From: a virus
Reading direction: 5' to 3' (one strand)
IMG/VR virus record: IMGVR_UViG_3300024520_000128
Coordinates: 1-46,044 of that record
DNA: 46,044 bases
The notes under the pieces are model-generated. The model did not search any database. It was given only the letters and a program-made list of their open reading frames with translations, and was not told the DNA's origin. The position numbers and the translations under genes are program-made. Of this stretch, positions 20,150-39,701 are shown in pieces (the first letter of the stretch is position 1; each line of letters starts with the position of its first letter).

Positions 20150-20506
20150 ATGTATAAGAGGGTAACTTCTGTAGTAGTAGTTTTACTGTTAGTGAGTTCC
20201 TTCTGTTATGCTCAAACTCCTAGAAATGCCTCTAATACTACAGCCCAGAGCGCATATAATTCTAAAAGCAATTTTACGAATATAAGTGTTCAAGGCTTAG
20301 ACGTTACAGGTAATCCGGGAATGATTGAAATGTTGTCTGCCGATACAGACGCAGCTGGAAACGCGGTTACTTTCAGTTGGTTTCTATGGGTAGACCAAGA
20401 TCAAAGGCTATGTATGGCATCTCAAGTTACATTAGAGACGTATGCTAGTTTTCCTGATGGCAATTTCAATGGAGTTCAGTGTGGAATAGTAGGTTCTCAG
20501 AGTTAA
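20150..20506 (+). CDS. Exported 118-residue protein after the capsid gene
   Basis: The ATG at 20150 follows AAAGGAGGAG; the longer frame to 20033 lies inside the capsid gene. MYKRVTSVVVVLLLVSSFCYA is a clear Sec signal peptide with cleavage before QTPRN. The mature part is beta-rich with two Cys (LCMASQV ... VQCGIVG). Encoded in the capsid operon just before a terminator, so one would expect a head protein, but it should be exported. First of nine such signal-peptide proteins in the structural region. Confidence 0.65.
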   Translation: MYKRVTSVVVVLLLVSSFCYAQTPRNASNTTAQSAYNSKSNFTNISVQGLDVTGNPGMIEMLSADTDAAGNAVTFSWFLWVDQDQRLCMASQVTLETYASFPDGNFNGVQCGIVGSQS

Positions 20507-20510
20507 TTGG

Positions 20511-20537
20511 AGGGGGAGAAATCCCCCTTCTTTTCTT
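20511..20537 (+). terminator. Intrinsic terminator after the capsid genes
   Basis: AGGGGGA (20511-20517), GAAA loop, TCCCCCT (20522-20528), then a T-rich tail to 20537. The stable tetraloop hairpin ends the capsid transcription unit and isolates the following membrane-protein gene. Confidence 0.88.
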
Positions 20538-20560
20538 AGGTAATTACAAGGAGTAATCCT

Positions 20561-21850
20561 ATGTTTTGGTTATTATGTTTATCGATCTTTCTCATACCGT
20601 TTTCAGGAGCGTTTAATTTCGTACCTAACGGGAATATTTGGGACACTCAGTACATAGCTTTCTTAGTACTGGCGTATTTGTTCTTATCGTTTAATATCGG
20701 TAAGTTTAATAAGTTGCTTGGTTTCTTTTCAGCGTATTGTATGTTCTCAGTAATTATAATAGCTCAACAACATCCGAGGTCGTTGTTTTGCTTAAACACT
20801 CTTTACTTCAGTATTTTAGCAATTAAGTATATTAGCACTTTAGATAGAAAGAAAATAAATATACTTCTTTGGGCTTTAGTAGGCTTGGTCGTTGCGCAAG
20901 GTGTTTTAGTGTGTTTACAGTTTATGGGTTGGGATCCGATATTTAATAAGATTGGCGCGCCTGGTTCAGATGATACTGTAGGTTTGTCAGGTAGCCATAA
21001 CCAGATAGGAACGTTTTTCGCAGTAACGGCTCCTTTAGTTTTAGTTTATTGTCCGTATCTGATTATTTTTAATATCATAGGTTTATTTGGAGCAACAACA
21101 ACAATAGCTTACTTCGCTTTTGCGGTAGGGGCTTTAGCTTTAGTTAGCCGTAAATACTCAGCTTTACTAGTACAAGCTATTCTCGTAGTAGGTCTTATTT
21201 TCTTCTTTAGGTTTGAAAGTGCTGATTTACCTAGTTCTATTCAGGAAAGGATAGAATTAACAAAGATGACGATTAATCAGGTAGAAACAGGCAACGCGGT
21301 AATGAGCAGGGATTTTGAAGAGGGAACTCAAGTAATAAATATCACATCAAATAAGTGGGTTGGTTTCGGGTTAGGTAATTTTATAAGAATATCTCCGCAT
21401 ACACAGAGATGGTATACGAAGCCAGATGCAATAGGAGCAAGAGCTTTAAAACAACACAGATATTCACACGCGCATAACGATTTCATTGAAGGGTATTTTG
21501 AGTTAGGGAGGATTGGCGCATTTCTTATTATCTTATTATTAATAGATTTCTTTTTTAAGTTTTATCGAGCAAAGAAAACAAAGTTATTAATGATTGCATT
21601 TGCGGGGGTAGTTGCTCATTTAGTATGTGCTTTAGGGGTTTTCACAATACAAACAGCAGTAACCGGAATATTGTTAATTATATTTTTAGGTATCTTTTAT
21701 AGGGAGATATATTATGGGAAGAAAAGGAAGATCAGGTGGATTGCCCGCTTGGCACAAAGGGCAACTGAGGAACGAAGCTCGTGGAGATTTTTGGTACGGC
21801 GAAAGGGAAGGGAAATTGTTTACCCAGGAAGGAAAGCTCGTAGACGCTAA
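20561..21850 (+). CDS. O-antigen ligase/polymerase-like membrane protein (Wzy/WaaL family)
   Basis: A 429-residue polytopic protein with about ten hydrophobic segments. It carries the Wzy_C/WaaL signatures: GLSGSHNQIGTFFAVTAPL (141-159), NKWVGFGLGNF (264-274) before a large periplasmic loop, and HAHNDFIEGYFELGRIGA (303-320) with the conserved His. Members join or polymerise O-antigen or other glycan units at the periplasmic face. In a phage this predicts host-surface or serotype change. The Lys/Arg-rich last 45 residues are read over the next gene's frame and are probably a late extension. SD AAGGAG; it follows a terminator. Confidence 0.85.
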   Translation: MFWLLCLSIFLIPFSGAFNFVPNGNIWDTQYIAFLVLAYLFLSFNIGKFNKLLGFFSAYCMFSVIIIAQQHPRSLFCLNTLYFSILAIKYISTLDRKKINILLWALVGLVVAQGVLVCLQFMGWDPIFNKIGAPGSDDTVGLSGSHNQIGTFFAVTAPLVLVYCPYLIIFNIIGLFGATTTIAYFAFAVGALALVSRKYSALLVQAILVVGLIFFFRFESADLPSSIQERIELTKMTINQVETGNAVMSRDFEEGTQVINITSNKWVGFGLGNFIRISPHTQRWYTKPDAIGARALKQHRYSHAHNDFIEGYFELGRIGAFLIILLLIDFFFKFYRAKKTKLLMIAFAGVVAHLVCALGVFTIQTAVTGILLIIFLGIFYREIYYGKKRKIRWIARLAQRATEERSSWRFLVRRKGREIVYPGRKARRR

Positions 21851-21905: not shown

Positions 21906-21911
21906 TGATTT

Positions 21912-22643
21912 ATGAAAGATGGTTTATGTTTAACTTGTAAAATAATTTTTATTCAACACGATTGTTATGATAGAAAGTATTGCTCTAGGAAATGTTATTT
22001 TGCTTCTTTGAAGGAGTCCATGAAAAATAATACTCGTGGGTTTCAGAAAAATATTAAAGTTGTTCATTCGAGGGAAACAACAGAGAAAATAAGAAAAGCT
22101 AATTTTGGGAGAAAAGCATCTAAAAAAGCTAGAAAGAAATTATCTATATCACATTTAGGAATTGTTGGAGGTATGAAAGATAAAAAACATTCTGATGAAT
22201 CTAAATTAAAGATGAGTCAATCAGCTAAAAAAACATTTTCTAATGGGAGGATTTCTTGGCAGAAAGGAAAGAAGTGTCCTCAGTTGTCTGGTAAGAATAG
22301 TCATTGTTGGAAAGGTGGCATAACAGAACTATACAATATGATTAGAAATAGTTTTGAAAACAAGCAATGGCGAAATGAAATATACAGAAGAGATAATTAC
22401 ACCTGTCAAGACTGCTTTAAAAGAGGTAACAATTTAGAAGCACATCATAAGTATAGATTTTCTTATATTTTGAGAGATTTTTTAAATGAATATAATCAAT
22501 TTAGTCCTACAGAGGATAAAGAAACTTTAGTGAGATTGTCAATCACATATAAGCCATTTTGGGATATTGATAATGGCGAGACTTTATGTCAATCGTGTCA
22601 CAGAAAAACATTTAATAAGAATGAATCTATAAGGAGGAGATAG
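21912..22643 (+). CDS. HNH homing endonuclease with NUMOD3-like repeats
   Basis: A 243-residue protein: N-terminal zinc knuckle (CLTCKIIF ... CSRKCYF), two NUMOD3-like DNA-binding repeats (RETTEKIRKANFGRK; SDESKLKMSQSAKK), and a C-terminal HNH core (RRDNYTCQDC ... LEAHHKYRF ... TLCQSCHRKT). Second free-standing HNH gene of the rightward operon. Base composition is more AT-rich than its neighbours, fitting mobility. It separates the ligase-like gene from the structural genes. Confidence 0.9.
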   Translation: MKDGLCLTCKIIFIQHDCYDRKYCSRKCYFASLKESMKNNTRGFQKNIKVVHSRETTEKIRKANFGRKASKKARKKLSISHLGIVGGMKDKKHSDESKLKMSQSAKKTFSNGRISWQKGKKCPQLSGKNSHCWKGGITELYNMIRNSFENKQWRNEIYRRDNYTCQDCFKRGNNLEAHHKYRFSYILRDFLNEYNQFSPTEDKETLVRLSITYKPFWDIDNGETLCQSCHRKTFNKNESIRRR

Positions 22644-23011
22644 TGAAGAAGATATTGATGATATTAATATTAGTTTTAATGGCAACTCCAGCCTTTGCAC
22701 AAAGGCGAGGACCATTACCTAATAGTTGGGCTAGTTGGTATCAGGTAACAGCTACAACTGAGATTAAAGTAACATTACCTGAAAACTCAAGAGATGTGTA
22801 TATTCGTAACGGCGGCAGTTCTAATAGTTTGTGCGTTAGCTTAAAAGGCAACACAGTAACAGATACTTGTGATGCTTCGGGCGCGAATACTTCGATAGTG
22901 CAGATAGCCGCAGGGTCTGAGATAGATTTAAGAGATTATACTACAAAAAGTCTTTCTTTGATTGGCGTAGGAGCTACAGCTAGTCCTGTGTCGGTGGTGG
23001 TTACTTACTAA
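22643..23011 (+). CDS. Exported beta-rich protein, 122 residues
   Basis: GTG start with AAGGAGGAGA upstream. Signal peptide MKKILMILILVLMATPAFA, cleavage before QRRGP. The mature part is a small beta-sandwich-like domain (TEIKVTLPENSRDVYIRNGG ...) with two Cys that could form a disulfide. Resembles short adhesin-type domains found in phage heads and fibres. It overlaps the HNH stop by one base. Confidence 0.6.
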   Translation: MKKILMILILVLMATPAFAQRRGPLPNSWASWYQVTATTEIKVTLPENSRDVYIRNGGSSNSLCVSLKGNTVTDTCDASGANTSIVQIAAGSEIDLRDYTTKSLSLIGVGATASPVSVVVTY

Positions 23012-23244
23012 TGGCAGAAGAGCAAAGAATACACTCTAATGTATTTAAAAAGCCGCCTGAGGTTGTTTTAGATAAACGGTTTAAGGTTCATAACAACTTG
23101 CCGTTAATGTCAATAGGACAGATGGAGGTGATGTTAAAGGTTTCGAATGTTGATTTAGTAAAAGATGAAAACTTAAATGAGTCGAAAGAGTATACCTTAG
23201 AGATTACAAAAGCAGAGGTTATTGAGGTAGAGAGTAACGTATGA
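23011..23244 (+). CDS. Small beta protein, tandem family copy 1
   Basis: A 77-residue protein: MAEEQRIHSNVFKKPPEVVL then a strand pattern with LPLMSIGQMEVMLKVSNVDL and YTLEITKAEVI. The L-x-x-M/L-x-x-G-x-x-x-x-x-x-x-V rhythm is shared with the next three genes, suggesting four diverged paralogs. Unknown function; a minor virion or capsid-surface role is inferred from position. Confidence 0.55.
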   Translation: MAEEQRIHSNVFKKPPEVVLDKRFKVHNNLPLMSIGQMEVMLKVSNVDLVKDENLNESKEYTLEITKAEVIEVESNV

Positions 23245-23435: not shown

Positions 23436-23442
23436 GGTATGT

Positions 23443-23682: not shown

Positions 23683-23894
23683 TGTCATTAGATACAGAAA
23701 TAATTAAAAGGTCTTTTGGTTTGCCTGAGGTTGAGGTTCCTGTAGAGATGGCTCTTGACCTTGAGGAAATGTCCGTAGATGACGATGTAAGTGCTTTAGT
23801 ATCGTTTAAGGTTATCGGTAAGAGTGAGAATGAGACTAAGATTTTAGTTAAGAGCTTTATTGTTAAATCAACTAAAAGGATACAAGATGCTTAA
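23682..23894 (+). CDS. Small beta protein, tandem family copy 4
   Basis: A 70-residue protein; LDLEEMSVDDDVSALVSFKV and TKILVKSFIVK match the common pattern. It overlaps the start of the connector gene by 8 bases (ATGCTTAA). Confidence 0.55.
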   Translation: MSLDTEIIKRSFGLPEVEVPVEMALDLEEMSVDDDVSALVSFKVIGKSENETKILVKSFIVKSTKRIQDA

Positions 23895-24834
23895 TTATAC
23901 AGAGTTAAAGACACATGTTGCTACACTAGCTCAAAGATCAGGCGACACTTCGTATATTACAGACATAGGTGTTTGGATTAATTTAGCACAAGATCATTTA
24001 TTTAAGATATACGACTATTGGGATGCACTTAAAGCACAGATTGATTTCACCACAGTAGATGGTACAGCACTTTATTTCTTCCCTGCAGATTTTCATAAAC
24101 CGTTTAGAATGTATGACATTACTAATAATAGACCAATAAATATAGTTGACGAACTGCCTTACTTTGATGCGAATATAGCGAATATTGCGGATGCCGTAGA
24201 AGCTGATCCTAATACAGCGTATATAAAAGAAGTTTCGGGTGTGAAGGTTCAAGTAAGCACTTCAGGGGACACAGTACAAGCTAAAAGCTCCTCAGCAAGT
24301 GATACAAGTGTTGACGTAAGAGTAGAAGGATATTTAGATTCAGGGCTTACGATAGTGGGGTACGAGGATATTACAGTTACAGGGACGACAGCGGTGGCAG
24401 GGACTACTACTTTCTATAAGATTCTTCATGTAAGCAAAGGGGCGGATAGTGTTGGGTTTATCACGTTAGAGGATTCTTCTGCTGTAGATTTAGCTATATT
24501 AGAGTCAATACAAAGGGTTTCTAGGTACAAAGCTTTTCGGTTAGGTAAGATACCAGACGACTCTACTACCTCGATCAGAGTTCTGTATAAGAAGAAACTT
24601 AGAAAATTAGTAGACGATGACGATTATCCGTTTGTAGATGCAGACGAGTATTTAATAAATCAAGCGTATGCTTATGCTTTAAATCAAGAAAAAGAGTCCG
24701 AGTCAAGAGAGCAGTTAGTTCAACAAAGAGCTAATACAGCTCTTAGTATTTTATTATCAAGTGAACAAGATTCTTACGGACCAGACTACCAGAAGAAGTG
24801 GGTTAATTCAATGGCACAGGCACATAGAGCATAA
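23887..24834 (+). CDS. Head-to-tail connector/adaptor-like protein
   Basis: A 315-residue protein from ATG 23887 (AAGGATACAAG upstream); a longer frame to 23860 lies in the previous gene. The N terminus (YTELKTHVATLAQRSGD ... WINLAQDHLFKIYDYWDAL) and C-terminal helix set (DADEYLINQAYAYALNQEKE) are typical of podoviral adaptor or tail-completion proteins encoded just before the tail genes. A beta insertion (about 120-190, SGDTVQAKSSSASDT) resembles an added Ig-like domain. Confidence 0.6.
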   Translation: MLNYTELKTHVATLAQRSGDTSYITDIGVWINLAQDHLFKIYDYWDALKAQIDFTTVDGTALYFFPADFHKPFRMYDITNNRPINIVDELPYFDANIANIADAVEADPNTAYIKEVSGVKVQVSTSGDTVQAKSSSASDTSVDVRVEGYLDSGLTIVGYEDITVTGTTAVAGTTTFYKILHVSKGADSVGFITLEDSSAVDLAILESIQRVSRYKAFRLGKIPDDSTTSIRVLYKKKLRKLVDDDDYPFVDADEYLINQAYAYALNQEKESESREQLVQQRANTALSILLSSEQDSYGPDYQKKWVNSMAQAHRA

Positions 24835-26448
24835 ATGCGTAAATACTTATTTATATTGCTATCGTTCTTTCTCATAACACCTTGTTACGCACAACAGGGC
24901 ATGAGACAAGTTCGTATCTCTGACTTCTCAGGTGGTATGAACAGTTATAGTTTATCTGACGTATTAGAGCCTAACCAAGCGGCTAGTATGGTTAATGTGG
25001 TCATAAATAGACCAGGAAGGATTACTAAACGCAAAGGGCAGGCTTTATTCAACTTAGATGTAGGTAGCACAGCTTTTGTAGGGATAGGAAGGTTTGACCC
25101 TGACGCAACAACTTCTTATTTAGTAGCCGCCTCGGGAACGGATGTAATTCGCTCTTTGTCAAGCAGCACTTCATGGACAGTGGCTAATCCTGCGAGTCCT
25201 TTGACTACAGAAAAGAATACTGAGTTCGTACAAGCAGACGACCTTTTATTTGTTCTAAACGGCTTCGATGCAACAGCTTGGTATACAGGATCTAAATGGG
25301 AAGAGTCTTTTGTCTATCCTTCTTCTCCACCTACGGCTTCAACAGGAGCTTGGCTTAGAAACTACCTCTTTCTAGCGGGTGCAACGGACGAGAATGATTG
25401 GGTTTACTTTAGTAACAATTTAGAACCTACGGTATTTGATGCGACAGATATTATTAAAATAAATACAGGTGACGGTCAGAAGGTTCAACACATGGAACCT
25501 TACAGATTAAACGAACTTATTATTTATAAAGAACGAAGTGTATTTGTATTAGACATTTCAGGGGATTCGCCGTTTTCTTTAACTGCGCCTTGGACAGTAC
25601 AACCTATTTCCACGGTAATAGGAACAGACGCCCCGAGATCAGTAGTTAGTTTAGGTAATGACCAGTGGTTTTTAAGTAGCGAACCGATTGCGATACGATC
25701 TTTAAATAGGACTGAGTTTGATAAGATATTGGTTAATATGGTTTCTGCTCCGATACAAGATGTTTTTGACCAGACAGGGTTAGTTAAATTAAATGTAACA
25801 AAGGTAGATAAGTCGGCAGCGATACTTTTTGATAACAAGTATATAATTGCAATTCCGACAGGGACTTCTTTAGTAAACAACACGGTATTCGTACATGACT
25901 TTATTACGAGCAGTTGGTATAGGATTGATGGTTGGTTTCCTTCTGATTGGATTGAGTTTGATAATCGCCTTTTTTATATTGACGCGAATGATGGCAGGGT
26001 TATTGAATGCTTTTCAGGAACGATAGGTGATTGGGAAGAAGGACCTAACTTTATAAACTCAGGCAGTGATCCAACAGTAGGTATACAGTTTGAGTACGTT
26101 TCAAGATCAATAGATTTTGATTTACCAGAGAACTTTAAAACTCCAGAAGCTTTAGAAGTTGAGTTGGCGGCAACAGGTAATTATAATGCAGGTGTGTATA
26201 TAAACAGAGATTTAAAGGGGTGGGTTAAGGTAGGAACGGTCAACCTCGCAGGCACAGCTACGACACTCCCGACTACCTTACCTTCCCCGCTTAACGAAGA
26301 GGGATTTAGTAGAAAAACGTTTCATATTCAAGATCAAGGGGAGTTTAAGAAAATCCAAGTTAGAGTTAATCAATTAGCTTCAAATCAAAGTGTTCAGTTG
26401 AATAGAGGGACTATTTTTGCACGCCCAAAACCCTGGAGAAGGGAATGA
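24835..26448 (+). CDS. Tail protein with an added Sec signal peptide
   Basis: A 537-residue protein. MRKYLFILLSFFLITPCYA is a clear signal peptide. Directly after it comes MRQVRISDFSGGMN, which resembles the normal start of a common podoviral tail protein (VRISDFSGGMN ... PNQAASMVNVVINRPGRITKR). A signal peptide thus seems fused ahead of the ancestral Met. The rest is a beta-propeller-like body with a C-terminal beta domain. Probably a tail nozzle or stopper component. The start codon follows the previous stop with no strong SD. Confidence 0.65.
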   Translation: MRKYLFILLSFFLITPCYAQQGMRQVRISDFSGGMNSYSLSDVLEPNQAASMVNVVINRPGRITKRKGQALFNLDVGSTAFVGIGRFDPDATTSYLVAASGTDVIRSLSSSTSWTVANPASPLTTEKNTEFVQADDLLFVLNGFDATAWYTGSKWEESFVYPSSPPTASTGAWLRNYLFLAGATDENDWVYFSNNLEPTVFDATDIIKINTGDGQKVQHMEPYRLNELIIYKERSVFVLDISGDSPFSLTAPWTVQPISTVIGTDAPRSVVSLGNDQWFLSSEPIAIRSLNRTEFDKILVNMVSAPIQDVFDQTGLVKLNVTKVDKSAAILFDNKYIIAIPTGTSLVNNTVFVHDFITSSWYRIDGWFPSDWIEFDNRLFYIDANDGRVIECFSGTIGDWEEGPNFINSGSDPTVGIQFEYVSRSIDFDLPENFKTPEALEVELAATGNYNAGVYINRDLKGWVKVGTVNLAGTATTLPTTLPSPLNEEGFSRKTFHIQDQGEFKKIQVRVNQLASNQSVQLNRGTIFARPKPWRRE

Positions 26449-27746
26449 GAAAGTATTTGTTTATATTAATGTTATTCATTAGTACCTCTGTTAGTGCTGG
26501 TACGATAACTATGCCTCAGTACGGGACAGGGGACACTTTGACTGCGGATAACCTTAATACAAGGTGGAATCTTAATACAAATACTCTCAATGGGGGACTT
26601 GACAATAATAACGCCGATGTCGATGATGGCTTCAGGTTCATTGAGATAGTTTCCTCTCTACCAGCTGCGGGTACTCAAGGCAGGGTAGTATTTAATACAG
26701 ATGATAACTTACTTTACTTTGACACAGGTTCTGAGTTTGTAGTTTCTTTAGTTTACTCAGGTACGGCAGCGAATGGCGATTTAACTTATTTCAAGACGGA
26801 TACCTGGAATTTACTTACGTCTGCTGTTCAGGGTAATGTTATTTATTACGATGGCACAGATTGGGTGCATTTAACTAAGGACACATCAAGCGAAAGATAT
26901 ATTTCAAATACAGGAACAGATAATAACCCTATTTGGGATCAGGTAGATGTAGTAGGTGGTTTAAGTATAACTGGTGGGAAACAAGGCGATATTTTCTTCG
27001 CCTCTAGCCCTACGTCTGTTGCGAGGTTAGAGCCAGGAACATCAGGGCAGATACTAGTAACGGCTGGCGTGGGTGCTGATCCTGCGTGGTTGTCTAATGT
27101 GAATTATTTTGATTCCGACGAAACTACTTTTATGGCTGTCGCCAATGGTTTGACAAGTTTAGATTTATCCCCAATACATAACGCTGTTACATTAACAAGC
27201 ATGACAGTAGCTGAGTTGAAAGAAGGAAGTGACTGCAGAGGTCCAACAACTTGTCTTGATTTTGATGGTAGCGCGGATTTCTATTCTATAGCTGATAATT
27301 CTTTTTTAGATAGCTGGACAGAACTTACTTTTGAGGTTTGGATGTTTAAGGATACTACAGGAGTAGAGTCTATTTTTGATAATACAACAGGAGCGTTTCA
27401 GTTTGATTTCAGAGATTCAACGATGGATCTTCTGCTTGATTTATCGGGTACGGACGTATCTGAAGCGTTTACGCACGGTTTATCAAGTAATGGAACTGGG
27501 CAATGGGTACATATTGTATTAGTTTTTGATACACTAACTTCAGTTACATTGTATATTAACGGGTCTGTCGCAGATTCTGTTTCAGAAGGTTCAGGTACTT
27601 TAGTTGCAATGTCTGGTGGAATGAAAATAGGCGTAGATGATTCAGGATCAGGTAGTTTTTTTGAAGGGAGAATTTCGGGAGTTAGGTTTTTAAATAGAGC
27701 TTTAACGGCAACAGAAATATCGGATAGATACAATTCATTCAAATGA
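26445..27746 (+). CDS. Fibre/adhesin with signal peptide and LamG-like domain
   Basis: A 433-residue protein: signal peptide MRKYLFILMLFISTSVSA, a fibre-like N-terminal part (NLNTRWNLNTNTLNGGLD; LVYSGTAANGDLTY), and a C-terminal LamG/concanavalin-like jelly roll (about 270-433: CLDFDGSADFYSIADNS, WTELTFEVWMF, GQWVHIVLVFD, VTLYINGSV, FEGRISGVRFLNRALT). Such domains bind surface glycans. It overlaps the tail gene by 4 bases. Likely a receptor-binding virion protein, although exported. Confidence 0.7.
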   Translation: MRKYLFILMLFISTSVSAGTITMPQYGTGDTLTADNLNTRWNLNTNTLNGGLDNNNADVDDGFRFIEIVSSLPAAGTQGRVVFNTDDNLLYFDTGSEFVVSLVYSGTAANGDLTYFKTDTWNLLTSAVQGNVIYYDGTDWVHLTKDTSSERYISNTGTDNNPIWDQVDVVGGLSITGGKQGDIFFASSPTSVARLEPGTSGQILVTAGVGADPAWLSNVNYFDSDETTFMAVANGLTSLDLSPIHNAVTLTSMTVAELKEGSDCRGPTTCLDFDGSADFYSIADNSFLDSWTELTFEVWMFKDTTGVESIFDNTTGAFQFDFRDSTMDLLLDLSGTDVSEAFTHGLSSNGTGQWVHIVLVFDTLTSVTLYINGSVADSVSEGSGTLVAMSGGMKIGVDDSGSGSFFEGRISGVRFLNRALTATEISDRYNSFK

Positions 27747-28179: not shown

Positions 28180-29052
28180 ATGGGATGTTTCGGAGGCGGC
28201 AAAAAGCAGGTGGCTACACAAATACCAGATGCACCTCAGTTCTTATCAGGTGAAGCAGGTACTAGACAAGGCTTTGATCTAGCAAGAGAACTTTTTCCTT
28301 TCACTCTAGGCGCAAGAGAGGGTCAAGCAGAGGCGTTTAGTACACCTGAGAGGGCAGAAGAGTTCTTTGGAGGATTTGGTCCTACGAGCGTTGAAGAGGC
28401 GGCATCTAGCGAGTTAGGTAGGCAACTAGAAAGGCAACTTCGGCAAAGACTCTCTTTGTCAGGGCTAGCTCATTCTCCTGCATTGGCTCAACTAGGTAGT
28501 CAAAAAGACATCGGATTAGCTCAAATGCTTCAACAATTAGGGCAACAACGAGCTTTTGGAGTAGCCGAAGCTAACTTAGGTATTGATCCACAGAACGTGT
28601 TGAGACCTATTACGAATGATATTTTTAGTCAAGATCAACTACAAGGGCAATCTAATTTTAATGTAGATTTATTAAGGGCGCAAGAAGCTTCTAGGGTGCA
28701 GAACTTTAACAACATACAAGCTAACAAGAAAGCTGCGGGGATTAAAACACTTTTAGGTACTGCCGCAGGTGCTTTAGGCGGAGGATTCCTATTGGCACCA
28801 GCATTGGCAAGTGCTGGAGTAGGATCAGCCGCAGCAGGTGCAGGCTTTGGATTAGGTGGCTCTGGAGGTTTTCTTGGTTTCGCGAGTCCAGGTTTATTAG
28901 GAACATTAGGAGGTGCAGCTTTAGGTGGGGGCATAGGTTCTTCGCTAGGAGGAGGCTCTCAACCCGCTCCGCTGAATTTAGGCGGGGCATTTGATATTAA
29001 TCAATTTCTTGCTGACCAAAGAAGAGGTCGCTCGCAAGAAACACTCTTTTAG
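28180..29052 (+). CDS. Internal/ejection virion protein (T7 gp14-like)
   Basis: A 290-residue protein: MGCFGGGKKQV, a Gln-rich helical centre (RQLERQLRQRLSLSGLAHSP), and a Gly/Ala hydrophobic segment (about 195-265, GTAAGALGGGFLLAPALASA) that can insert into membranes. Composition and order match podoviral ejection proteins that enter the host envelope during infection. It follows the GNAT-like gene with 2 bases between. Confidence 0.65.
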   Translation: MGCFGGGKKQVATQIPDAPQFLSGEAGTRQGFDLARELFPFTLGAREGQAEAFSTPERAEEFFGGFGPTSVEEAASSELGRQLERQLRQRLSLSGLAHSPALAQLGSQKDIGLAQMLQQLGQQRAFGVAEANLGIDPQNVLRPITNDIFSQDQLQGQSNFNVDLLRAQEASRVQNFNNIQANKKAAGIKTLLGTAAGALGGGFLLAPALASAGVGSAAAGAGFGLGGSGGFLGFASPGLLGTLGGAALGGGIGSSLGGGSQPAPLNLGGAFDINQFLADQRRGRSQETLF

Positions 29053-29063
29053 GGAGAATAATA

Positions 29064-30254: not shown

Positions 30255-32020
30255 TGACAAAGCGTAAATATGTAACAAACAAAGGTACTTTTGTTATCGA
30301 TTCTAATCGTGAATTAACTCCTGACGAATTAGATAAAGAAGTAGACTTGGAGGATAACAAGTTCTTCGACAAAGAAGCTTTTGTTGGTAGCATTAGTAAG
30401 AACTTAAAACAAGCTGCAAGTGATGTTCACACCGAGGGAGTTGGTGTATTAACCTCTTTTGCAAACCAAAGACTATTAGGGTTACCGAAAGCAGGTCTAG
30501 AAAAAGTTAGTCCTGAGGCAGCTGAGTTTGTGTTCCCTGAGCCTAGAACGTTTCAAGGCAAGATAGCCAAGGGTGGCGCAGATATAACGGGATTCTTAAA
30601 AGGTGCGGGAGTTGGTGCTGGTGGGTATTTATCTAAGTTGGTAGCGGGTTCTGGCCCAGCAAGAGCAGGTATCAGGGAGGCAATTAAATTTGGGACAGCA
30701 GGAGCATTACAGACGCCTGATAATGCCGAAGGAGATCTTCTGGCTCCTAGACAAAGAGCTTTTCAAGCAGCATTTGGTGCATTCGGAGGTCCGATTGGTA
30801 CATTGACAGTCAAAGCATTAGGTCTTGGTACGAAGTTTACAGGTAAAGTTGCAAGTAGAATAAACGAAGGACTTAAGAGGCATGGTGTTTCGCTACAAGC
30901 TCCTGACTTTGTAAGACAAACACTAGCCCCTAAATTAAGTGAGGCGTTTCAAGGTGCATTACAGAAATTTGATAATAACTTTCAAAGTTTTGCTTTAAGA
31001 AAAATGAGAATACCTAAAGAGCAAATATCTCATATTTCAAAAAGAACTCCACAGGCGGTGACAGATGCACTTGCTAAATCAGGGGGGAAGGTCGATGATA
31101 TTCTTGCACAAGCAGATGATTCTATTCTTCAGCGAACACAATCAGTTGATAATTTATATGAGCAATCTTTAAATTCTGTTGAAGGAGTAGTCGTCCCTAA
31201 AAATGCTTTGAAACTAGCAAAAGATAAGTTGACAAGTGTTGGGTTTCGAGGAACTGCGGGAGATCAATTAGCACTTGCGAGAGTACAGGGAAGAAATAAG
31301 GCTTTTGCTGTTTTAGATGATTTCTTTGAACAAAACAATGTGCAAGGAAGCTTTGGAACACCAACTAGATTTACTGCTACGCCTGGGTCTATCAGCAAAG
31401 AACAATTTATCTTTTGGAGAGATGCTATAAGCAAAGCTCAAAGAGGTGCAACAGATTCAGAAAGAAGAATATTAAAGCAAATGTCCGACGCTTTACATAA
31501 AGATGCTGAGGTCGCAGGGTTTAAAGGCATAACTAAGGCTCGGGATGAGTTTGCTATTTTGCAAGATGTTATAGAGACTAGAGGTGGAGTGACAGAAAAG
31601 AACTTAGAAGGCATATTTAATCTAGATGCTAAAAAACTATCAACTATAAATAAATTAGAGCGTCAAACAGGCGTAAAAATTGCTGAATCTTCAAAAGATA
31701 TTATTTCTGGGAAAACCTTAGAACAGAAGCTTTTATCGCAAAAACTAGATGAGGCTGTTCTTGGTGAAACGGAGTTTTTTGCTAAGCAATTAGATAGCGC
31801 ATTAAATTCGGCGAAAACAACTACTATTAAAAAAGATTTAACAACGTTGCTAGGCAATGAGAAGTTGGTCGATCAAGCGATAGATGATTTGATTAGTTTT
31901 AAACAAATACAACAAGCTAAAAAAGTTGGTATAGGAGTGGGTGCTACTGTCGGAGGAGCATTGCTAGGGAGACAGTTTGGTTTATTTGGAGGAGGAGGCG
32001 GTTTTGGACAAGAACCTTAA
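30254..32020 (+). CDS. Large internal/ejection protein, 588 residues
   Basis: Starts MTKRKYVTNKGTFVIDSNRE; residues about 110-190 are Gly/Ala-rich and hydrophobic (ITGFLKGAGVGAGGYLSKL), the rest is long helices with Lys/Gln. No lytic transglycosylase motif was found, unlike T7 gp16. Its last codons (GFGGGGGF, GGAGGAGGAGG) act as the SD for the sulfotransferase start, so the two genes overlap by 17 bases. Confidence 0.6.
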   Translation: MTKRKYVTNKGTFVIDSNRELTPDELDKEVDLEDNKFFDKEAFVGSISKNLKQAASDVHTEGVGVLTSFANQRLLGLPKAGLEKVSPEAAEFVFPEPRTFQGKIAKGGADITGFLKGAGVGAGGYLSKLVAGSGPARAGIREAIKFGTAGALQTPDNAEGDLLAPRQRAFQAAFGAFGGPIGTLTVKALGLGTKFTGKVASRINEGLKRHGVSLQAPDFVRQTLAPKLSEAFQGALQKFDNNFQSFALRKMRIPKEQISHISKRTPQAVTDALAKSGGKVDDILAQADDSILQRTQSVDNLYEQSLNSVEGVVVPKNALKLAKDKLTSVGFRGTAGDQLALARVQGRNKAFAVLDDFFEQNNVQGSFGTPTRFTATPGSISKEQFIFWRDAISKAQRGATDSERRILKQMSDALHKDAEVAGFKGITKARDEFAILQDVIETRGGVTEKNLEGIFNLDAKKLSTINKLERQTGVKIAESSKDIISGKTLEQKLLSQKLDEAVLGETEFFAKQLDSALNSAKTTTIKKDLTTLLGNEKLVDQAIDDLISFKQIQQAKKVGIGVGATVGGALLGRQFGLFGGGGGFGQEP

Positions 32021-32798: not shown

Positions 32799-32806
32799 GA
32801 GATAAG

Positions 32807-33091
32807 ATGGCATTCCAAAATGTAGGTCGTAAGCCTATTATAATTAACTACACCATATCATCAACAGGTGCATGGGAAAAGGCTGCCTCACAGCAAAGAG
32901 GTTCTAGGAAGTGGTTTATAAAAACCCGAGAGAGCACTAGCAATGCTTTTGATTTAGCGTTTGTAGCTGCACCTTCTGCTCACATGACATCTGATGGATC
33001 AGGGTTTACTTTTGATTTCTCAGCTATGCCAGATGTTTATGTAAAAACTTCAACAGCGGGGACTATCTTTGAGATCGTTTATTTTAATTAG
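32807..33091 (+). CDS. Small beta virion protein, copy 1 of a duplicated module
   Basis: A 94-residue protein with pattern SSTGAWEKAASQQRGSRKWF, AFDLAFVAAP, SDGSGFTF and AGTIFEIVYF, matching the 35731-36063 protein throughout. No signal peptide. It overlaps the following exported fibre gene by exactly 23 bases, as does its paralog. SD AGGAGATAAG. May be a fibre adaptor or small head-decoration protein. Confidence 0.6.
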   Translation: MAFQNVGRKPIIINYTISSTGAWEKAASQQRGSRKWFIKTRESTSNAFDLAFVAAPSAHMTSDGSGFTFDFSAMPDVYVKTSTAGTIFEIVYFN

Positions 33092-34217
33092 TATATTATT
33101 ATTTAGTACACAAGCATTTGCTCAAAGTGGTTTCGGTCCTATCCGAACAAATAAAGCTTCTAAGATAAAGCTAGATACCACAATGTTCTCTAAGGGCGTG
33201 CTAGGGGCTTCTGATACTACAGTTCAATTAGCACTACAAACTCTCAGTGCCTCTCCCGTTTCTATAGTCGCGTCAGGTTCAGATACAGACTCTTCAACAA
33301 CTGAAAGCGATAGTGGGTTAGAGCTTATAGACAGTTTTGTTACTTTACTAAGAGGGTGTTCTGATAACGAGATATTAAAGTGGGACGAAGCCGCAGATGA
33401 TTGGAATTGTGAAGCAGATGGTGGCGGTGGAAGTGCTACAGCGTACGACGATATTACAGATCCTGATTCAGATACTCAGATTGCTTTTGGTACGAATAAT
33501 AACGCTTGGACAAGTACGTCTACAGCTACTTTCTTTACAATAGACGGCACAGATGGGAACGTAGCGGTATCTTTAGCTGACGGCAATCTAAGTGTATCAG
33601 ATTCGATAGTAATAAGTGGAGACACAATCAGCGATTTTGCAAACCAAGCAGGACTAGCAGATGCAGACTCAAGTAATACAGATAGCGATTCAGGTTTAGA
33701 GGTTGTAAGTAATGCTCTTACTTTGTTAAGAGGTTGTTCAGATGATCAAATACTCAAATGGGACGAGACTAACGACGATTGGAACTGTGAGACAGACGGC
33801 GGTGGTGGTGGAAGCATAAGAGAGGTTGTAGTAGTTCCTTTTGACTTCGCCACAGAAACAAGTGTAGGAGATGGTGCTCACTACGTCAGTATAAGCCCAC
33901 AGCTTGCAGATACTACTTTAACGGCTATTACTGCTTGGGTAACGGCAAGTGGATTAACAGGTACATTAAATGTAGATTTAGCTAAATGTGCTTTAGTAGC
34001 AATAGGGAGTCCTTGTTCTGGTACAGTAACTGATTTACTTTCTACTAATTTAACTATAGATAGCGGGGAGTATACTTCAGCGAGTGCGGCTACTGCGGCT
34101 GTTATAGATACTGCACATCAGACAATGGAGCATGACGTAATGATTAGAGTTGATGTAGACGCAGTACATACTACAAAAGCCAAAGGTTTAATAGTAACCT
34201 TAGGATTTACTGAATAG
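33069..34217 (+). CDS. Exported fibre-like protein with internal repeats
   Basis: A 382-residue protein. TTG start with GGGGA 6 bases upstream. Signal peptide MRSFILISILLFSTQAFA, cleavage before QSGFG. Two repeats (about 80-118 and 203-241) carry SDSGLE, LLRGCSDN/DD, ILKWDE and DDWNCE followed by a Gly run. The Cys pairs suggest disulfides, consistent with export. The C terminus is a beta domain (FDFATETSVGDGAHYVSI). Fits a fibre or host-binding protein. Confidence 0.65.
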   Translation: MRSFILISILLFSTQAFAQSGFGPIRTNKASKIKLDTTMFSKGVLGASDTTVQLALQTLSASPVSIVASGSDTDSSTTESDSGLELIDSFVTLLRGCSDNEILKWDEAADDWNCEADGGGGSATAYDDITDPDSDTQIAFGTNNNAWTSTSTATFFTIDGTDGNVAVSLADGNLSVSDSIVISGDTISDFANQAGLADADSSNTDSDSGLEVVSNALTLLRGCSDDQILKWDETNDDWNCETDGGGGGSIREVVVVPFDFATETSVGDGAHYVSISPQLADTTLTAITAWVTASGLTGTLNVDLAKCALVAIGSPCSGTVTDLLSTNLTIDSGEYTSASAATAAVIDTAHQTMEHDVMIRVDVDAVHTTKAKGLIVTLGFTE

Positions 34218-35734
34218 TGGTTAAGAAATTAATATTTATAGTATCGATCCTTCTCATGACTTTTCCTGCCTTTGCAGCAACTGAAGATTTTCGTACATAC
34301 TGGGTTGACGATGATGACAATGACATGAACGTTTATCCCAAGATAATTGAAATGACGACTATGCGAAGAGACGTTGATTCTTCTGTGTTTAAAGACTATG
34401 AAGCCTCTCACTTTGGCGACTTTGTAATCAACTTTACATTTAATATAACGGCTCAAGGGGGTACGAACTCGCATGGAAATGTGATGTCTTTAACAAATAT
34501 TGCGGCTCCTTCTGTTCAGGACATTCTAGATGCAGGAGTTGGCGTAATGGTTAGGTATTTTAATAGTTCTGGATCAACGACGATATTCTTAGATCAAAGG
34601 TCAGGGACAGACGACATTGATTCTTTTGTAATAACAGTGGGAACAACTTACTATGCGACATTTACAAGAACTGCTTCTAGCACATATACCTTAGAGCTTT
34701 TCAGTGATGAGGCTAGGACTTCATCTGTAGATGTAATGACTGTTGACTACGAAGGAACAGCCTATCGTTATATTGCTTTTGTAGGTTCAAGAGAATCAGG
34801 CACAACCCCTACTTGGTCAGCTACAGTCTCAGAGGCAGAGATAATCAGCCCTGCTGCTGGTTGTTCGTTTGGGAACTTATCGTTATGTACTACAGAGGCA
34901 GCGTGTGAGGCTATTTTTGGACTGTGGGCGGAGGCTTGTTATGGTATACCAGTAAGTCCTTTATTTGAAGATCATGTAACGTTGGAGTGGACTAACGATA
35001 AAGGGACAATGCAAGGATTTTCTAATGATGGAACAGATTTCTATTGGTCAGAAGATGAAGGAGCTACAACAGCAATGTTCCAAATTGATGCTGCTGGGTC
35101 AGACGTTGCAAACTGTACTGGCATAGCAAACTCTCATGGTGGATTTAATGAATGGAATGATTCAACCAGTAAATTCTCTTTATCTACAACGCAAGGGTCA
35201 GGAGATCATGACACATGCAATTTTGCAGCCACAACTTGTACGAACTGTCAAGATTATGATATAGACACAGCGGTAGGAGCAGATACAAACCCTGTAATAA
35301 ATGGCTGGTGGTACGACGATTGGTATATTATCAGAGCGATTGATTCTGTGACAGGTACTGACTTAGTGTTTCATGAACTTGAATTGGTCGATGGAGCTTC
35401 GACAATAAACAATGGTGATGAGTATACTACGGGTGTTCAAGTATCAGCCGGTACGTTGCAGGGGTTAGACTACGCTGATGGGTATGCTTACTGGTATGGA
35501 GAGATAAATGGTGCGGCAACGTCCCCTAAGCATATTATTGAATTTGAATTAGATGACCCTAATAATACCGCAAAGATAAAGAGGGTTTGGGCGATGAATT
35601 TCTCAACAGAGGCAGAGGGTATGTGGATAGACGATACAGATGCTGATAAAGTATTCTTTGGGGATATTAGCGGAAATATGAGAAGTTTTTCAAAGAAAAA
35701 GTTTATAACAAGAACACAAAGGAATGTATATTGA
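34217..35734 (+). CDS. Exported large adhesin/tailspike-like protein
   Basis: A 505-residue protein from GTG 34217. Signal peptide MVKKLIFIVSILLMTFPAFA. Residues about 50-210 look like a jelly-roll lectin-type domain (DFVINFTFNITA ... YYATFTRTASSTYTLELF), then a Cys-rich box CSFGNLSLCTTEAACEAIFG, then a propeller-like C-terminal half (TMQGFSNDGTDFYWSEDEG; GMWIDDTDADKVFFGD). Cys pairs fit an oxidising compartment. Likely receptor-binding or surface-displayed. Confidence 0.65.
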   Translation: MVKKLIFIVSILLMTFPAFAATEDFRTYWVDDDDNDMNVYPKIIEMTTMRRDVDSSVFKDYEASHFGDFVINFTFNITAQGGTNSHGNVMSLTNIAAPSVQDILDAGVGVMVRYFNSSGSTTIFLDQRSGTDDIDSFVITVGTTYYATFTRTASSTYTLELFSDEARTSSVDVMTVDYEGTAYRYIAFVGSRESGTTPTWSATVSEAEIISPAAGCSFGNLSLCTTEAACEAIFGLWAEACYGIPVSPLFEDHVTLEWTNDKGTMQGFSNDGTDFYWSEDEGATTAMFQIDAAGSDVANCTGIANSHGGFNEWNDSTSKFSLSTTQGSGDHDTCNFAATTCTNCQDYDIDTAVGADTNPVINGWWYDDWYIIRAIDSVTGTDLVFHELELVDGASTINNGDEYTTGVQVSAGTLQGLDYADGYAYWYGEINGAATSPKHIIEFELDDPNNTAKIKRVWAMNFSTEAEGMWIDDTDADKVFFGDISGNMRSFSKKKFITRTQRNVY

Positions 35735-36063: not shown

Positions 36064-38083
36064 AATCTTATTTTTGTTATTAATTCCTTCAGTTGCATTT
36101 GCACAACGGGCAGATATATCTAAAGATTATTATTATGATCAAGCTACTACAGAGTGGCTGCCATGGAGAGGTACTGTTTCTCAAGCATCTACATTGACAG
36201 TCTCTTCAACAACTACAGAATATACTGAAGGAGACACGGATGCATCTATTACAGCTCCAGCCACTCTTTTCGAAAGTCTTACTAATTCAAATAGATTAAC
36301 TACTCTACAGGGACATGAACTTTCTAATTCTAATGTAATTTCTGTAGAAATCATGGATGGAGATGGGACTCAAATAACTTCTTTTGGTGGAGGAACTCAG
36401 TATACGGAGAATGATGTAGATGCCTCTATTACAGGAACAGCCTTTATGTTTGAAGGATTTAGTGATGATTTAAAATCAATCTCTGAAGCAGTTCCTTTGC
36501 CGATATTTAATGCGAGTAATGTTACAGTAGATACAGCAGGAACATCAGGGCTAGAAGTAGTACAAGATACAGCCGCCGATCTTAACATGACAGAAGTTAA
36601 TTCTGGCGACATTTTGACGTCTGTTCAATTAATTGACAATATTGTTCAAGCTGAAGATGCTGTTGCAGGTTCAGGCGACGCAGGGGTGATGTCTTTAGCG
36701 GTACGAAACGATACTCTTGCACCTGCGGCAGCAGACGGAGATTACACTTCATTGCAGACAAATGCAATGGGGTCTTTATGGGTACATGAAGAAGAGAATT
36801 CTGTAGATTCTGGGAACTCAACGACATCTGTTTTGGGTAGTGGGGCAACATTCACAGGAACAGGTGTAGATGTTTTAGCGTATGAAGCAGTTACTATAAC
36901 ATTGGCATCAAGCCATGATTCTGCTACCGATGGCATGACTTTCCAATTTTCTACAGATAATTCTAATTGGGATGATGTATATACATTCACAATGGATATA
37001 TCTTCTTCGGATACAAGAAGATTCCAATTTCCCACTACAGCACAATATTTTAGAGTTGTTTATACGAATGGTGGAACGCTTCAAACTCATTTTAGAGTTC
37101 AAACGATCTTGCATCATAACAATCAATTAACATCAATACATAGACTAGCAGATAGCTCTTCCCCTGACAGATCCGCTCAAGTAGTAAAATCAGCTATTAT
37201 CGCACAGCAAGGAGGAGGGGGTCCATCAGCAGGAAATTTTATCCCTATACAAGCAACAAATGGAGGCAATCTAAGAATATCTTTACAAGAAGCGTCAGAT
37301 GGTATGGATATCGGGGCTGGTAACGCGGGATCTGAAACTTTAAGGGTTAGTATATCTACTGATGATGTGAATATGTCAGCTATTAAAACGGCGATAGAGT
37401 TAATAGACACTGTTGGTGGTGGTACAGAAGCAACAGCACAGAGAGTCACAATAGCGAGTGATTCAACGGGGCTTCTTAGTATTGACGACAATGGAGGATC
37501 TATTACAATTGATGGCACTGTTACAGAAGCTAACTCTACAGCGATCTTGGCAGACACAGCTATTATGTCAGAATGGGATAACACGGATAGCGATGGCGCG
37601 AGTGTGTCAGGGAATAAGGCTCACGATGCAGCCTGGGGTAATACTGAGCCTGTAGGTATAGGGTTAGAAGCAAGAACTACTTTAGGAACAGCTGTTGGTG
37701 ATGGAGACATGGTAAAGGCTATGGGTGACGATAATGGGCGGCAAGTTACAGTTAATAACTGTCCAAGAGATTTAGTTACTCAGAACGTAAAGGCAATATC
37801 AGACACAACAGAAGCTACTATTTTAGATGCGGCAGCTAGTACGTTTCATGATTTAACATCACTTGTTATTTCAAACACTTCATCGAATAGTACTATAGTT
37901 GATATAAGAGATGCATCCGGCGGTACGGTAGTTTTATCTGTAGGGTTATCACCTAAAGGCGGGTATGTTCTTCCGTACAATACTCCTTTTACCCAAACAA
38001 CAGTTAATAATATATGGACTGCAAGCTTAAGAACTGCAGTTACTGATGTAATTTTTACTGTACAAGCGTGTAAGAATAACTAA
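36041..38083 (+). CDS. Exported fibre-like protein, 680 residues
   Basis: TTG start after AGGAGCTTTAA. Signal peptide MKLSLLSKILFLLLIPSVAFA, cleavage before QRADI. Long beta-rich protein with Thr/Ser/Asp repeats (TEYTEGDTDASITAPATLFE and YTENDVDASITGTAFMFEG are related units), a central domain like those of phage surface proteins (MTFQFSTDNSNWDDVYTF), and a C-terminal beta domain. Probably a fibre or spike; no catalytic motif seen. Confidence 0.65.
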   Translation: MKLSLLSKILFLLLIPSVAFAQRADISKDYYYDQATTEWLPWRGTVSQASTLTVSSTTTEYTEGDTDASITAPATLFESLTNSNRLTTLQGHELSNSNVISVEIMDGDGTQITSFGGGTQYTENDVDASITGTAFMFEGFSDDLKSISEAVPLPIFNASNVTVDTAGTSGLEVVQDTAADLNMTEVNSGDILTSVQLIDNIVQAEDAVAGSGDAGVMSLAVRNDTLAPAAADGDYTSLQTNAMGSLWVHEEENSVDSGNSTTSVLGSGATFTGTGVDVLAYEAVTITLASSHDSATDGMTFQFSTDNSNWDDVYTFTMDISSSDTRRFQFPTTAQYFRVVYTNGGTLQTHFRVQTILHHNNQLTSIHRLADSSSPDRSAQVVKSAIIAQQGGGGPSAGNFIPIQATNGGNLRISLQEASDGMDIGAGNAGSETLRVSISTDDVNMSAIKTAIELIDTVGGGTEATAQRVTIASDSTGLLSIDDNGGSITIDGTVTEANSTAILADTAIMSEWDNTDSDGASVSGNKAHDAAWGNTEPVGIGLEARTTLGTAVGDGDMVKAMGDDNGRQVTVNNCPRDLVTQNVKAISDTTEATILDAAASTFHDLTSLVISNTSSNSTIVDIRDASGGTVVLSVGLSPKGGYVLPYNTPFTQTTVNNIWTASLRTAVTDVIFTVQACKNN

Positions 38084-39351
38084 TGAAAAAAATATTAATA
38101 ACTCTTTCGATCATCTTCACAATATCTTCACCCTGCCACGCTATGCGCCAGGTAATCATATCTGGGCTAAGAAACAATCTTAATAATTCAACAACAGAAT
38201 ATGTGGGGTTAGCTACAGCCAATCCTCGAAACTGGACAGCTACTAGAACGAATGTTGAACAGTTAATCTCTGCAGGTGGAACTCTAAGTAGATTGTTAGT
38301 TGAAACTGATGCTGCCCCTGGGGCAGGGGATAGTTATGTATTCACAGTTTATGTCAATGGTTCTGCTTCTTCATTAACCGCTACGGTTAGTGAAACAGGG
38401 GCACAGGGATTTGATTTTGACAATGAAGTCAGCATCTCTCCTGGCGATTTAGTTGTTATGGAAGTTGCCCCCACCGGAACACCAGCTACAACATTTTGTA
38501 GATGGGCACTAGTTTTTCAGAGCACAAATGACAGAGAGTATGCTACCATTGCAGGAAGCAATGTTACAATAATTGCAGGAAAAGCTGCTGCTGATGTTAA
38601 TTATCTTGACAGGGGAGCTACTTGGTTATTAACTACTGGTGCAGGAGTTTTTGACAGAGAAGCTCTTTTTTCTCAGAACGTGACATTGAAAGATTTATAC
38701 CTTGAACTAACTGTTGCACCAGGAGCGGGAGAGAATTACACCTTTACTGTTGGCGGCTCTAGTATCTCAGTACCTATCACGGACACTTCAACAACAGGAA
38801 ACGATACGTCTAATACTAAGAGTATCTTAGCTACAGACAACAATCATTTTATCAGCTATACATCTTCGCTTGGAGCTGCCACAAGTAGGGCTAGATGGGG
38901 TTTTGTATTTGAAACAGAAATTGAAGACGAGTACCCGATAGCCGCGGGATCTAATAATAATTTAAACGCCACGTTTACAGAGTATAATTCAATTGACGGG
39001 ACGGGAAGGGCTTGGAACGGGACATTGACAAGTAGAGAGAGCTTAATGCAGTGTTCTAGAGTTAAGAATTTTTATGTAGAATTATCCAAGCGACCAGGTG
39101 GAGCGGTAGATGATACTTTTCAGTTTACTATAATGAAGAATGGGGTAGCCACGGATCTTGACTTTACGATCACCCACCCAGCCACAACGGGAAGTGACAC
39201 TTCTAATATTGTAGAGTTTGACGATTTCGACACGATAACAATTAGATCCACTCCAGGAGGGACGCCAGTTTCAACAGTAGACGCTTCGTGGGGAATAACG
39301 GTTGAAGCTACAACACCTCACAATCTTTCAACAACAGGAGCGGGAGTATGA
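38083..39351 (+). CDS. Exported protein of three tandem beta domains
   Basis: A 422-residue protein. Signal peptide MKKILITLSIIFTISSPCHA followed directly by MRQVIISGLR, so an older start Met may lie at the cleavage site. Three related domains of about 130 residues each carry a core like LVETDAAPGAGDSYVFTVYV, LELTVAPGAGENYTFTV and VELSKRPGGAVDDTFQFTI. Likely a repeated adhesin or fibre protein. It overlaps the previous stop by one base. Confidence 0.65.
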   Translation: MKKILITLSIIFTISSPCHAMRQVIISGLRNNLNNSTTEYVGLATANPRNWTATRTNVEQLISAGGTLSRLLVETDAAPGAGDSYVFTVYVNGSASSLTATVSETGAQGFDFDNEVSISPGDLVVMEVAPTGTPATTFCRWALVFQSTNDREYATIAGSNVTIIAGKAAADVNYLDRGATWLLTTGAGVFDREALFSQNVTLKDLYLELTVAPGAGENYTFTVGGSSISVPITDTSTTGNDTSNTKSILATDNNHFISYTSSLGAATSRARWGFVFETEIEDEYPIAAGSNNNLNATFTEYNSIDGTGRAWNGTLTSRESLMQCSRVKNFYVELSKRPGGAVDDTFQFTIMKNGVATDLDFTITHPATTGSDTSNIVEFDDFDTITIRSTPGGTPVSTVDASWGITVEATTPHNLSTTGAGV

Positions 39352-39701
39352 AAAAGCTATTATTTATAGCTTTAATTCTATTTATAAGCACCACCTGCTA
39401 CGCCCAAAACAAAGTTAAGATTGCTAGTTTAGATTATAGGGCAGGGCAGTCTCTGGTAGATATTCAGCTGATTGTGATTAATAGTTTTTTAATTGGAAAG
39501 ACGTTGTTGTATTTTGAGGTAGATGACGAGTTCCTCTTAGGTGTTTATACAGACGACGCGCCTGCGGCTGGGGAGCAGAGACAGCTAGGGGTTTTAATGA
39601 ACATGACGCGAACGTCTTTAGAGACAATAATATCCAGCTTGGACTTATGTGGATTTCAGCACGTTGAAGATAAAACAGCAATCTGGTGTTACAAAATCTA
39701 G
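39348..39701 (+). CDS. Exported 117-residue protein near the lysis genes
   Basis: Signal peptide MKKLLFIALILFISTTCYA, cleavage before QNKVK. The mature alpha/beta domain has two Cys near the end (LDLCGFQHVEDKTAIWCYKI). Overlaps the upstream gene by 4 bases. Its place just before holin-like genes could mean a periplasmic lysis or regulator role, but there is no recognisable family. Confidence 0.55.
   Translation: MKKLLFIALILFISTTCYAQNKVKIASLDYRAGQSLVDIQLIVINSFLIGKTLLYFEVDDEFLLGVYTDDAPAAGEQRQLGVLMNMTRTSLETIISSLDLCGFQHVEDKTAIWCYKI

What the first reader, a model, noticed from the sequence alone, without database searches (positions are those of the whole stretch)
20150..39701. Nine structural-region proteins carry Sec signal peptides
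Proteins starting at 20150, 22643, 24835, 26445, 33069, 34217, 36041, 38083 and 39348 begin with textbook signal peptides (Lys/Arg, hydrophobic core, then A-x-A-type site, often before Gln). Tailed-phage virion proteins are normally cytoplasmic. The fibre set also contains paired Cys, fitting an oxidising periplasm. Either these fibres are displayed on the host surface or assembled in the periplasm, or a decoy/adhesin system has been built from virion parts. The cores share sequence (for example TCGTTCTTTCTCAT, TCGATCCTTCTCAT, TCGATCTTTCTCAT), suggesting copying of one cassette.
Basis: partly seen in the sequence, partly recalled or inferred. Interest (0 to 1): 0.9.

Follow-up and report, generated by a model that had tools for sequence, protein, structure and literature searches.

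The report
Phage tail proteins exported before assembly
In a family of uncultured short-tailed phages, the tail nozzle, the fibres and two small proteins all carry signals that send proteins out of the cytoplasm, while head proteins and the tail adaptor do not, so these viruses probably build one particle from parts made on both sides of the bacterial inner membrane, which no known tailed phage does.

Summary
Confirmed and extended. All nine N-termini are Sec signal peptides (SPs) under a rule-based predictor that found 15/16 known E. coli exported proteins and 0/72 cytosolic ones. One carrier is a core tail part: gene 24835 is the tail nozzle (top 17 PDB fold matches are podovirus tail proteins, including P22 gp10), directly after an SU10-type adaptor.

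SPs are conserved in about 20 related phages: 16/17, 14/14, 15/16 and 9/12 orthologs of genes 20150, 22643, 24835 and 26445, against none in portal, scaffold, capsid, adaptor or ejection proteins. Downstream of the capsid gene, 54/163 genes carry SPs in the clade against 4/974 in outgroups. Related phages have the same nozzle and fibre starting at the mature N-terminus, without SPs. SP sequences drift (31% identity) yet keep their form; neutral drift would keep about 1%. Cysteine patterns fit an oxidising compartment. A Wzy_C-family membrane protein, closest to an oligosaccharyltransferase, occurs throughout the clade and in none of nine outgroup genomes.

Best reading: nozzle, fibres and two small proteins are exported, oxidised (perhaps glycosylated) and joined to cytoplasmic heads at lysis. 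Export is well supported; the joining step is inferred. "Cassette copying" is not supported.

The parts
20150..20506 (+). Small exported protein after MCP; SP 20150-20212 (21 aa) then Q; 2 Cys in the mature part
   Evidence: SP in 16/17 orthologs; covarying Cys pair
20561..21850 (+). Multi-spanning membrane protein of the Wzy_C superfamily (O-antigen ligase / polymerase / O-oligosaccharyltransferase)
   Evidence: Wzy_C in 7/7 members scanned; best PDB profile hits 9rmk oligosaccharyltransferase 3e-14, then 7tpg ligase 3e-6; in all 11 further clade members tested and 0/9 outgroup genomes
22643..23011 (+). Small exported beta-type protein; SP 22643-22699 (19 aa) then Q
   Evidence: SP in 14/14 orthologs
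23887..24834 (+). Head-to-tail adaptor, no SP
   Evidence: Pfam SU10_adaptor 6e-15; 0/14 orthologs with SP
24835..26448 (+). Tail nozzle (beta-propeller); SP 24835-24891 (19 aa) directly before the conserved xVRIxxFxGGMN start of the domain
   Evidence: AF2 pLDDT 71; top 17 PDB fold hits are podovirus tail proteins; SP in 15/16 orthologs
26445..27746 (+). Fibre next to the nozzle with C-terminal Laminin_G_3 lectin domain; SP 26445-26498 (18 aa)
   Evidence: Pfam; SP in 9/12 orthologs; mature N-terminus homologous to SP-less fibres of related phages
33069..34217 (+). Fibre-like protein; SP 33069-33122; 6 Cys in the mature part
   Evidence: SP in 2/2 orthologs; weak tail-fibre PHROG
34217..35734 (+). 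Receptor-binding type protein; SP 34217-34276; 8 Cys
   Evidence: weak Phage_RBD_prop match, below the curated cut-off; SP score
36041..38083 (+). Fibre-like protein with F5/8-type C carbohydrate-binding-like stretch; SP 36041-36103
38083..39351 (+). Fibre-region protein; SP 38083-38142; 2 Cys
39348..39701 (+). Small exported protein; SP 39348-39404; 2 Cys
14171..16360 (+). Portal, no SP (cytoplasmic side)
   Evidence: Pfam SU10_portal 3e-16; 0/12 orthologs with SP
19225..20136 (+). Major capsid protein, no SP
   Evidence: phrog_371 2e-17; 0/16 orthologs with SP
28180..32020 (+). Three genes in the position of ejection proteins, no SP
   Evidence: position; 0 orthologs with SP

Best explanation
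This is a podovirus with a portal-adaptor-nozzle tail whose distal parts are made as Sec/signal-peptidase I precursors. Head, portal, scaffold, adaptor and probable ejection proteins stay in the cytoplasm. Nozzle, fibres and two small proteins are exported, lose their signal, and fold and form disulphides in the periplasm; the clade's own Wzy_C-type enzyme may add glycans there. Filled heads closed at the adaptor meet this pool when the inner membrane fails at lysis, and the nozzle-fibre part joins them. Shown by sequence: signals, their selection and phylogenetic extent, nozzle fold, Cys signature, gene association. Inferred: cleavage, virion incorporation, glycosylation, joining at lysis.
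For: Nine SPs; ortholog table; 54/163 against 4/974; SP identity 0.31 against 0.58 for the mature part, neutral drift keeps about 1%; even Cys 42/62 against 119/314, P=2e-5; covarying Cys pair; nozzle fold; SU10-type portal and adaptor; SP-less relatives with nozzle and fibre beginning at the mature N-terminus; no SP on any SU10 structural protein checked; one nozzle gene per genome and no internal Met in 12/14; Wzy-like gene confined to the clade. Among proteins with assignable roles, the signals begin exactly beyond the adaptor, a coherent assembly boundary.
Against: No proteomics, no cultured member, host unknown. In P22, proteins beyond the portal help to retain packaged DNA (own knowledge; the nozzle's place in the tail is in PMC3741392), so heads would have to be stable without the nozzle until lysis. 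Two fibre-region beta-proteins (32807, 35731) have no SP. The nozzle model has moderate confidence (TM about 0.5). The lysis genes of this phage were not identified.
Confidence: 0.58

Rival explanations
1. The exported copies do not enter virions: they remain in the periplasm or on the surface as decoy, adhesin or superinfection-exclusion proteins, while some nozzle and fibre escapes export and is built into virions (dual localisation).
For: Lectin, galactose-binding-like and receptor-binding-like domains; a Wzy_C envelope gene and an SP-bearing nuclease at 9737 would also fit an exclusion role.
Against: The SP sits on the only nozzle gene; no internal start in 12/14 orthologs; SPs are strong and conserved, not weak as dual targeting would suggest.
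Confidence: 0.17
2. Assembly is coupled to the inner membrane: heads dock from the cytoplasmic side and the particle is completed or extruded through the envelope, loosely like filamentous phage coat proteins, rather than at lysis.
For: Many envelope-directed gene products; the exported set is exactly the part beyond the adaptor.
Against: No secretin- or pI/pIV-like gene was noticed; heads of this type are far too large for known export channels; one member has an SLT lytic transglycosylase domain that suggests lysis.
Confidence: 0.1
3. The N-terminal hydrophobic segments are not removed; they act in the virion, for example as membrane-inserting peptides during infection.
For: Ejection proteins of other phages insert into membranes (own knowledge).
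Against: The A-x-A-type site followed by Gln is kept in most nozzle orthologs; even-Cys and Cys covariation fit export; same architecture on small proteins and fibres.
Confidence: 0.08
4. Prediction artefact or wrong start codons.
For: Only a rule-based predictor was available; some nozzle starts have weak Shine-Dalgarno sequences.
Against: Calibration, conservation and outgroup contrast, drift simulation; most orthologs have no alternative Met.
Confidence: 0.03

Closest known systems
Podovirus tails of the P22 gp4/gp10 and SU10 gp11/gp17 type
   Same: SU10-type portal and adaptor by Pfam; nozzle fold matches P22 gp10, Pa223, VP1, SU10 and T7 tails; nozzle gene follows the adaptor gene
   Different: SU10 structural proteins have no SP; here nozzle, fibres and two small proteins do
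Related SP-less phages (L045, L245-L254)
   Same: Same order adaptor, nozzle, fibre; 28-31% nozzle identity to the window and homologous fibre N-terminus
   Different: Nozzle and fibre start at the mature N-terminus; 2/110 SP genes; no Wzy-like gene found in the stretches held
Filamentous phage coat proteins (pIII, pVIII), from own knowledge
   Same: Virion proteins made as Sec precursors, so virion parts sit outside the cytoplasm before assembly
   Different: ssDNA extrusion without lysis; no icosahedral head or packaged dsDNA
Wzy_C superfamily: WaaL, Wzy, PglL-type O-oligosaccharyltransferases
   Same: Superfamily profile match and conserved H-x-H-N-D motif; best solved relative is an oligosaccharyltransferase
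   Different: Phage-encoded inside the late module; substrate unknown; very divergent

Membership tests
SU10/P22-like podovirus tail | SU10-type portal and adaptor | tested here: met
   SU10_portal 3e-16, SU10_adaptor 6e-15, both above cut-off
SU10/P22-like podovirus tail | Nozzle with beta-propeller fold after the adaptor | tested here: met
   Foldseek top 17 hits are phage tail proteins, E 1.5e-19 to 3.6e-8; model pLDDT 71
SU10/P22-like podovirus tail | Tail proteins made without export signals | tested here: not met
   SP on nozzle and fibre here; absent in SU10 and in related SP-less phages
Sec / signal peptidase I substrates | n-h-c architecture with A-x-A-type site | tested here: met
Sec / signal peptidase I substrates | Cleavage and translocation in the host | not testable with these tools
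   needs fusions or proteomics
O-oligosaccharyltransferase (PglL-type) | Wzy_C superfamily membership | tested here: met
   7/7 members, best E 4e-10; the window protein itself is below the Pfam cut-off
O-oligosaccharyltransferase (PglL-type) | Transfers glycan to protein rather than to lipid A or polymer | tested here: inconclusive
   best PDB profile hit is an oligosaccharyltransferase (3e-14) against a ligase (3e-6); sequence alone does not decide
Filamentous phage | Secretin or assembly ATPase, ssDNA replication | not tested
   no dedicated search; none seen among annotated genes, and the window has dsDNA packaging genes (terminase, portal, capsid)

The most novel reading that the evidence does not exclude
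A tailed dsDNA phage lineage assembles each virion from two compartments: DNA-filled heads with adaptor in the cytoplasm, and a nozzle-fibre tail that is Sec-exported, disulphide-bonded and O-glycosylated in the periplasm by a phage-encoded oligosaccharyltransferase, the halves joining only at lysis.
Probability: 0.35. Interest if true: 0.95.

Novelty: new variant of a known kind. Interest (0 to 1): 0.85.

Why it matters
Tailed phages are understood to finish their virions in the cytoplasm. A clade in which the tail beyond the adaptor is exported would break that rule, give phage tails access to disulphides and periplasmic glycosylation, and show that head completion and tail completion can be separated in space. 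It is directly testable by N-terminal proteomics or fusions.

Tried and rejected
Cassette copying: rejected. Internal SP-less start for the nozzle: no Met in 12/14. Close relatives of the nozzle by single-protein scan: none; they were reached through MCP and alignments. Portal against INPHARED: no match. First nozzle model (6 sequences) was too poor, pLDDT 47. Sequence-profile search of PDB with the nozzle found nothing; only the fold search did. Host: genome scan found one close relative (L147, MCP 62%, same set of signals) in a Euryarchaeota MAG, judged likely misbinned because a clade member has an SLT (peptidoglycan) domain and the window a peptide deformylase. Literature: six targeted searches found no report of signal peptides on tailed-phage virion proteins; rumen Bacteroides phages with 1-2 SPs (PMC5723332) are not said, in the passages read, to carry them on virion proteins. 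Whole-length fibre profile gave no convincing homology to SP-less fibres; the N-terminal 48 residues did. Two in-clade nozzles scored SP-negative are predictor misses by eye: MKKLLIIALLLFSSKAYAQ (K in c-region) and L035, where a hydrophobic core and CFSQ site are present but the start is unclear.

Full report
What the window is. The window is a 46 kb virus record with terminase, SU10-type portal (Pfam SU10_portal 3e-16), scaffold, capsid protein, SU10-type adaptor (SU10_adaptor 6e-15), nozzle, fibres and probable ejection proteins in podovirus order. Its portal has no relative in 50,697 annotated phage genomes.

The observation. All nine N-termini are signal peptides. I wrote a rule-based Sec/SPI predictor and calibrated it on E. 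coli K-12 proteins chosen by gene name: 15/16 exported detected, 0/72 cytosolic called. The nine score 5.1-7.0. SignalP itself was not available.

One carrier is the nozzle. Protein 24835 follows the adaptor. An AlphaFold2 model from 15 homologues (pLDDT 71) searched against PDB gives as its top 17 hits only podovirus tail proteins (Pa223, VP1, P22 gp10, SU10, PhiM1, E1004, phicrAss001, LME-1, T7 and others; E from 1.5e-19). TM-scores are at most about 0.5, so this is fold-level evidence. The SU10 structure paper describes the nozzle as a hexamer attached to the adaptor dodecamer (PMC9509320). All thirteen SU10 proteins that I checked lack an SP.

Conservation. Loci of about 20 related phages were collected. 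Orthologs with SP: 20150 16/17; 22643 14/14; 24835 15/16; 26445 9/12. Without SP: portal 0/12, scaffold 0/16, 17987 0/16, 18631 0/17, MCP 0/16, adaptor 0/14, 28180 0/9. The contrast in neighbourhoods is 54/163 genes (15 in-clade loci, every one with at least two) against 4/974 (95 outgroup loci), odds ratio 120; loci are related, so the P value is nominal. On a nozzle tree the SP-bearing rows form one group (SH-aLRT 99) together with two rows that are predictor misses or unclear.

Selection. Among in-clade nozzles the SP is 31% identical and the mature part 58%. A neutral simulation that drifts the window SP to that identity leaves a predicted SP in 1-1.5% of runs. The signal function, not its sequence, is being kept.

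Signals were added to ordinary virion proteins. A related group (L045, L245-L254) has the same adaptor-nozzle-fibre order with 2/110 SP genes. Its nozzles begin MPVLTxxRxKxRxxDFSGGQNS, that is, at the mature start of the SP-bearing ones (QxxLxKVRIxDFSGGMNS). A profile of the 48 mature N-terminal residues of the SP-bearing fibre, searched against 639 proteins of SP-less phages, has as its top seven hits (best E 6e-8) exactly the gene after the nozzle in that group, starting MGIVNLPAFGTDPVTVNAANLDGKVDPLANEFNGG.

An oxidising compartment. Of mature SP-bearing proteins with cysteines, 42/62 have an even number against 119/314 of the others (P=2e-5). In 20150 orthologs two cysteines covary: both 5, one only 1 and 1, neither 12 (P=0.003, not corrected for kinship). 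These are signs of export that do not use the SP itself.

A linked envelope enzyme. Between the first two SP genes lies a multi-spanning Wzy_C protein, found in all 11 further clade members tested and in 0/9 outgroup genomes. A weak hit in outgroup locus L089 (E 1e-4) lies in a frame that overlaps other called genes and looks like chance. Wzy_C is matched by 7/7 members scanned. Its best solved relatives are an oligosaccharyltransferase (9rmk, 3e-14) and then a ligase (7tpg, 3e-6). Glycosylation of the exported tail parts is an attractive but unproved guess; modification of surface polysaccharide is the alternative.

Mechanism. Among proteins with assignable roles, the exported set is everything beyond the adaptor and the cytoplasmic set is everything up to it. 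There is one nozzle gene per genome and no internal start in 12/14, so virion nozzle should come from the exported precursor. The simplest model is that the tail part matures in the periplasm and meets filled heads when the inner membrane fails at lysis. Tail parts can join phage heads outside cells: P22 was completed in vitro from heads and baseplate parts (Israel 1967, seen only as a reference title in PMC3741392). The weak points are DNA retention without the nozzle, unknown lysis genes and unknown host.

What is not supported. Copying of one SP cassette. A pure decoy system, because the nozzle is included; for individual fibres it remains possible.

Novelty. Targeted searches of 5.4 million open papers found no report of signal peptides on tailed-phage virion proteins. 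Subscription papers are not covered. I rate it a new variant of the podovirus tail, with two-compartment assembly as the novel case.

Noticed in passing
window 9737-10150: Staphylococcal-nuclease-type protein (SNase 1.5e-14) with its own signal peptide; could degrade incoming DNA in the periplasm (superinfection exclusion).
   Followed up: partly
window 31977-32798: Sulfotransferase-domain protein inside the structural module; might act on the same glycans as the Wzy_C protein.
   Followed up: no
window 32807-33091 and 35731-36063: Two related small beta-type proteins without signal peptide (30% identity), each directly before an SP-bearing fibre gene; they do not fit the rule that the fibre set is exported.
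   Followed up: partly
window 23011-23894: Four tandem small SP-less genes of about 65-80 codons that look alike; similar runs stand before the adaptor in clade relatives.
   Followed up: no
window 13255-14163: GroES-like (Cpn10) protein and peptide deformylase next to each other before the portal.
   Followed up: no
L147: Clade member (MCP 62%) on a contig binned in a Euryarchaeota MAG; probably misbinned, otherwise an archaeal host.
   Followed up: partly
L109 13308-15350: Outgroup phage (71.7 kb contig) with an SP-bearing 680-residue protein and a second SP gene soon after MCP; possible independent case.
   Followed up: partly
L124 15227-16189 and 18862-19398: Clade member with phage integrase (2e-29) and SLT transglycosylase: some members are probably temperate and have bacterial hosts.
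   Followed up: yes
L128 14275-15716: Four consecutive lipoprotein-like genes (lipobox at the N-terminus) in another clade member: more envelope-directed cargo.
   Followed up: no
L045 1857-4028: SP-less nozzles of the related group carry an insertion of about 190 residues after the first 60-70 residues that looks like a concanavalin/laminin-G lectin domain.
   Followed up: no
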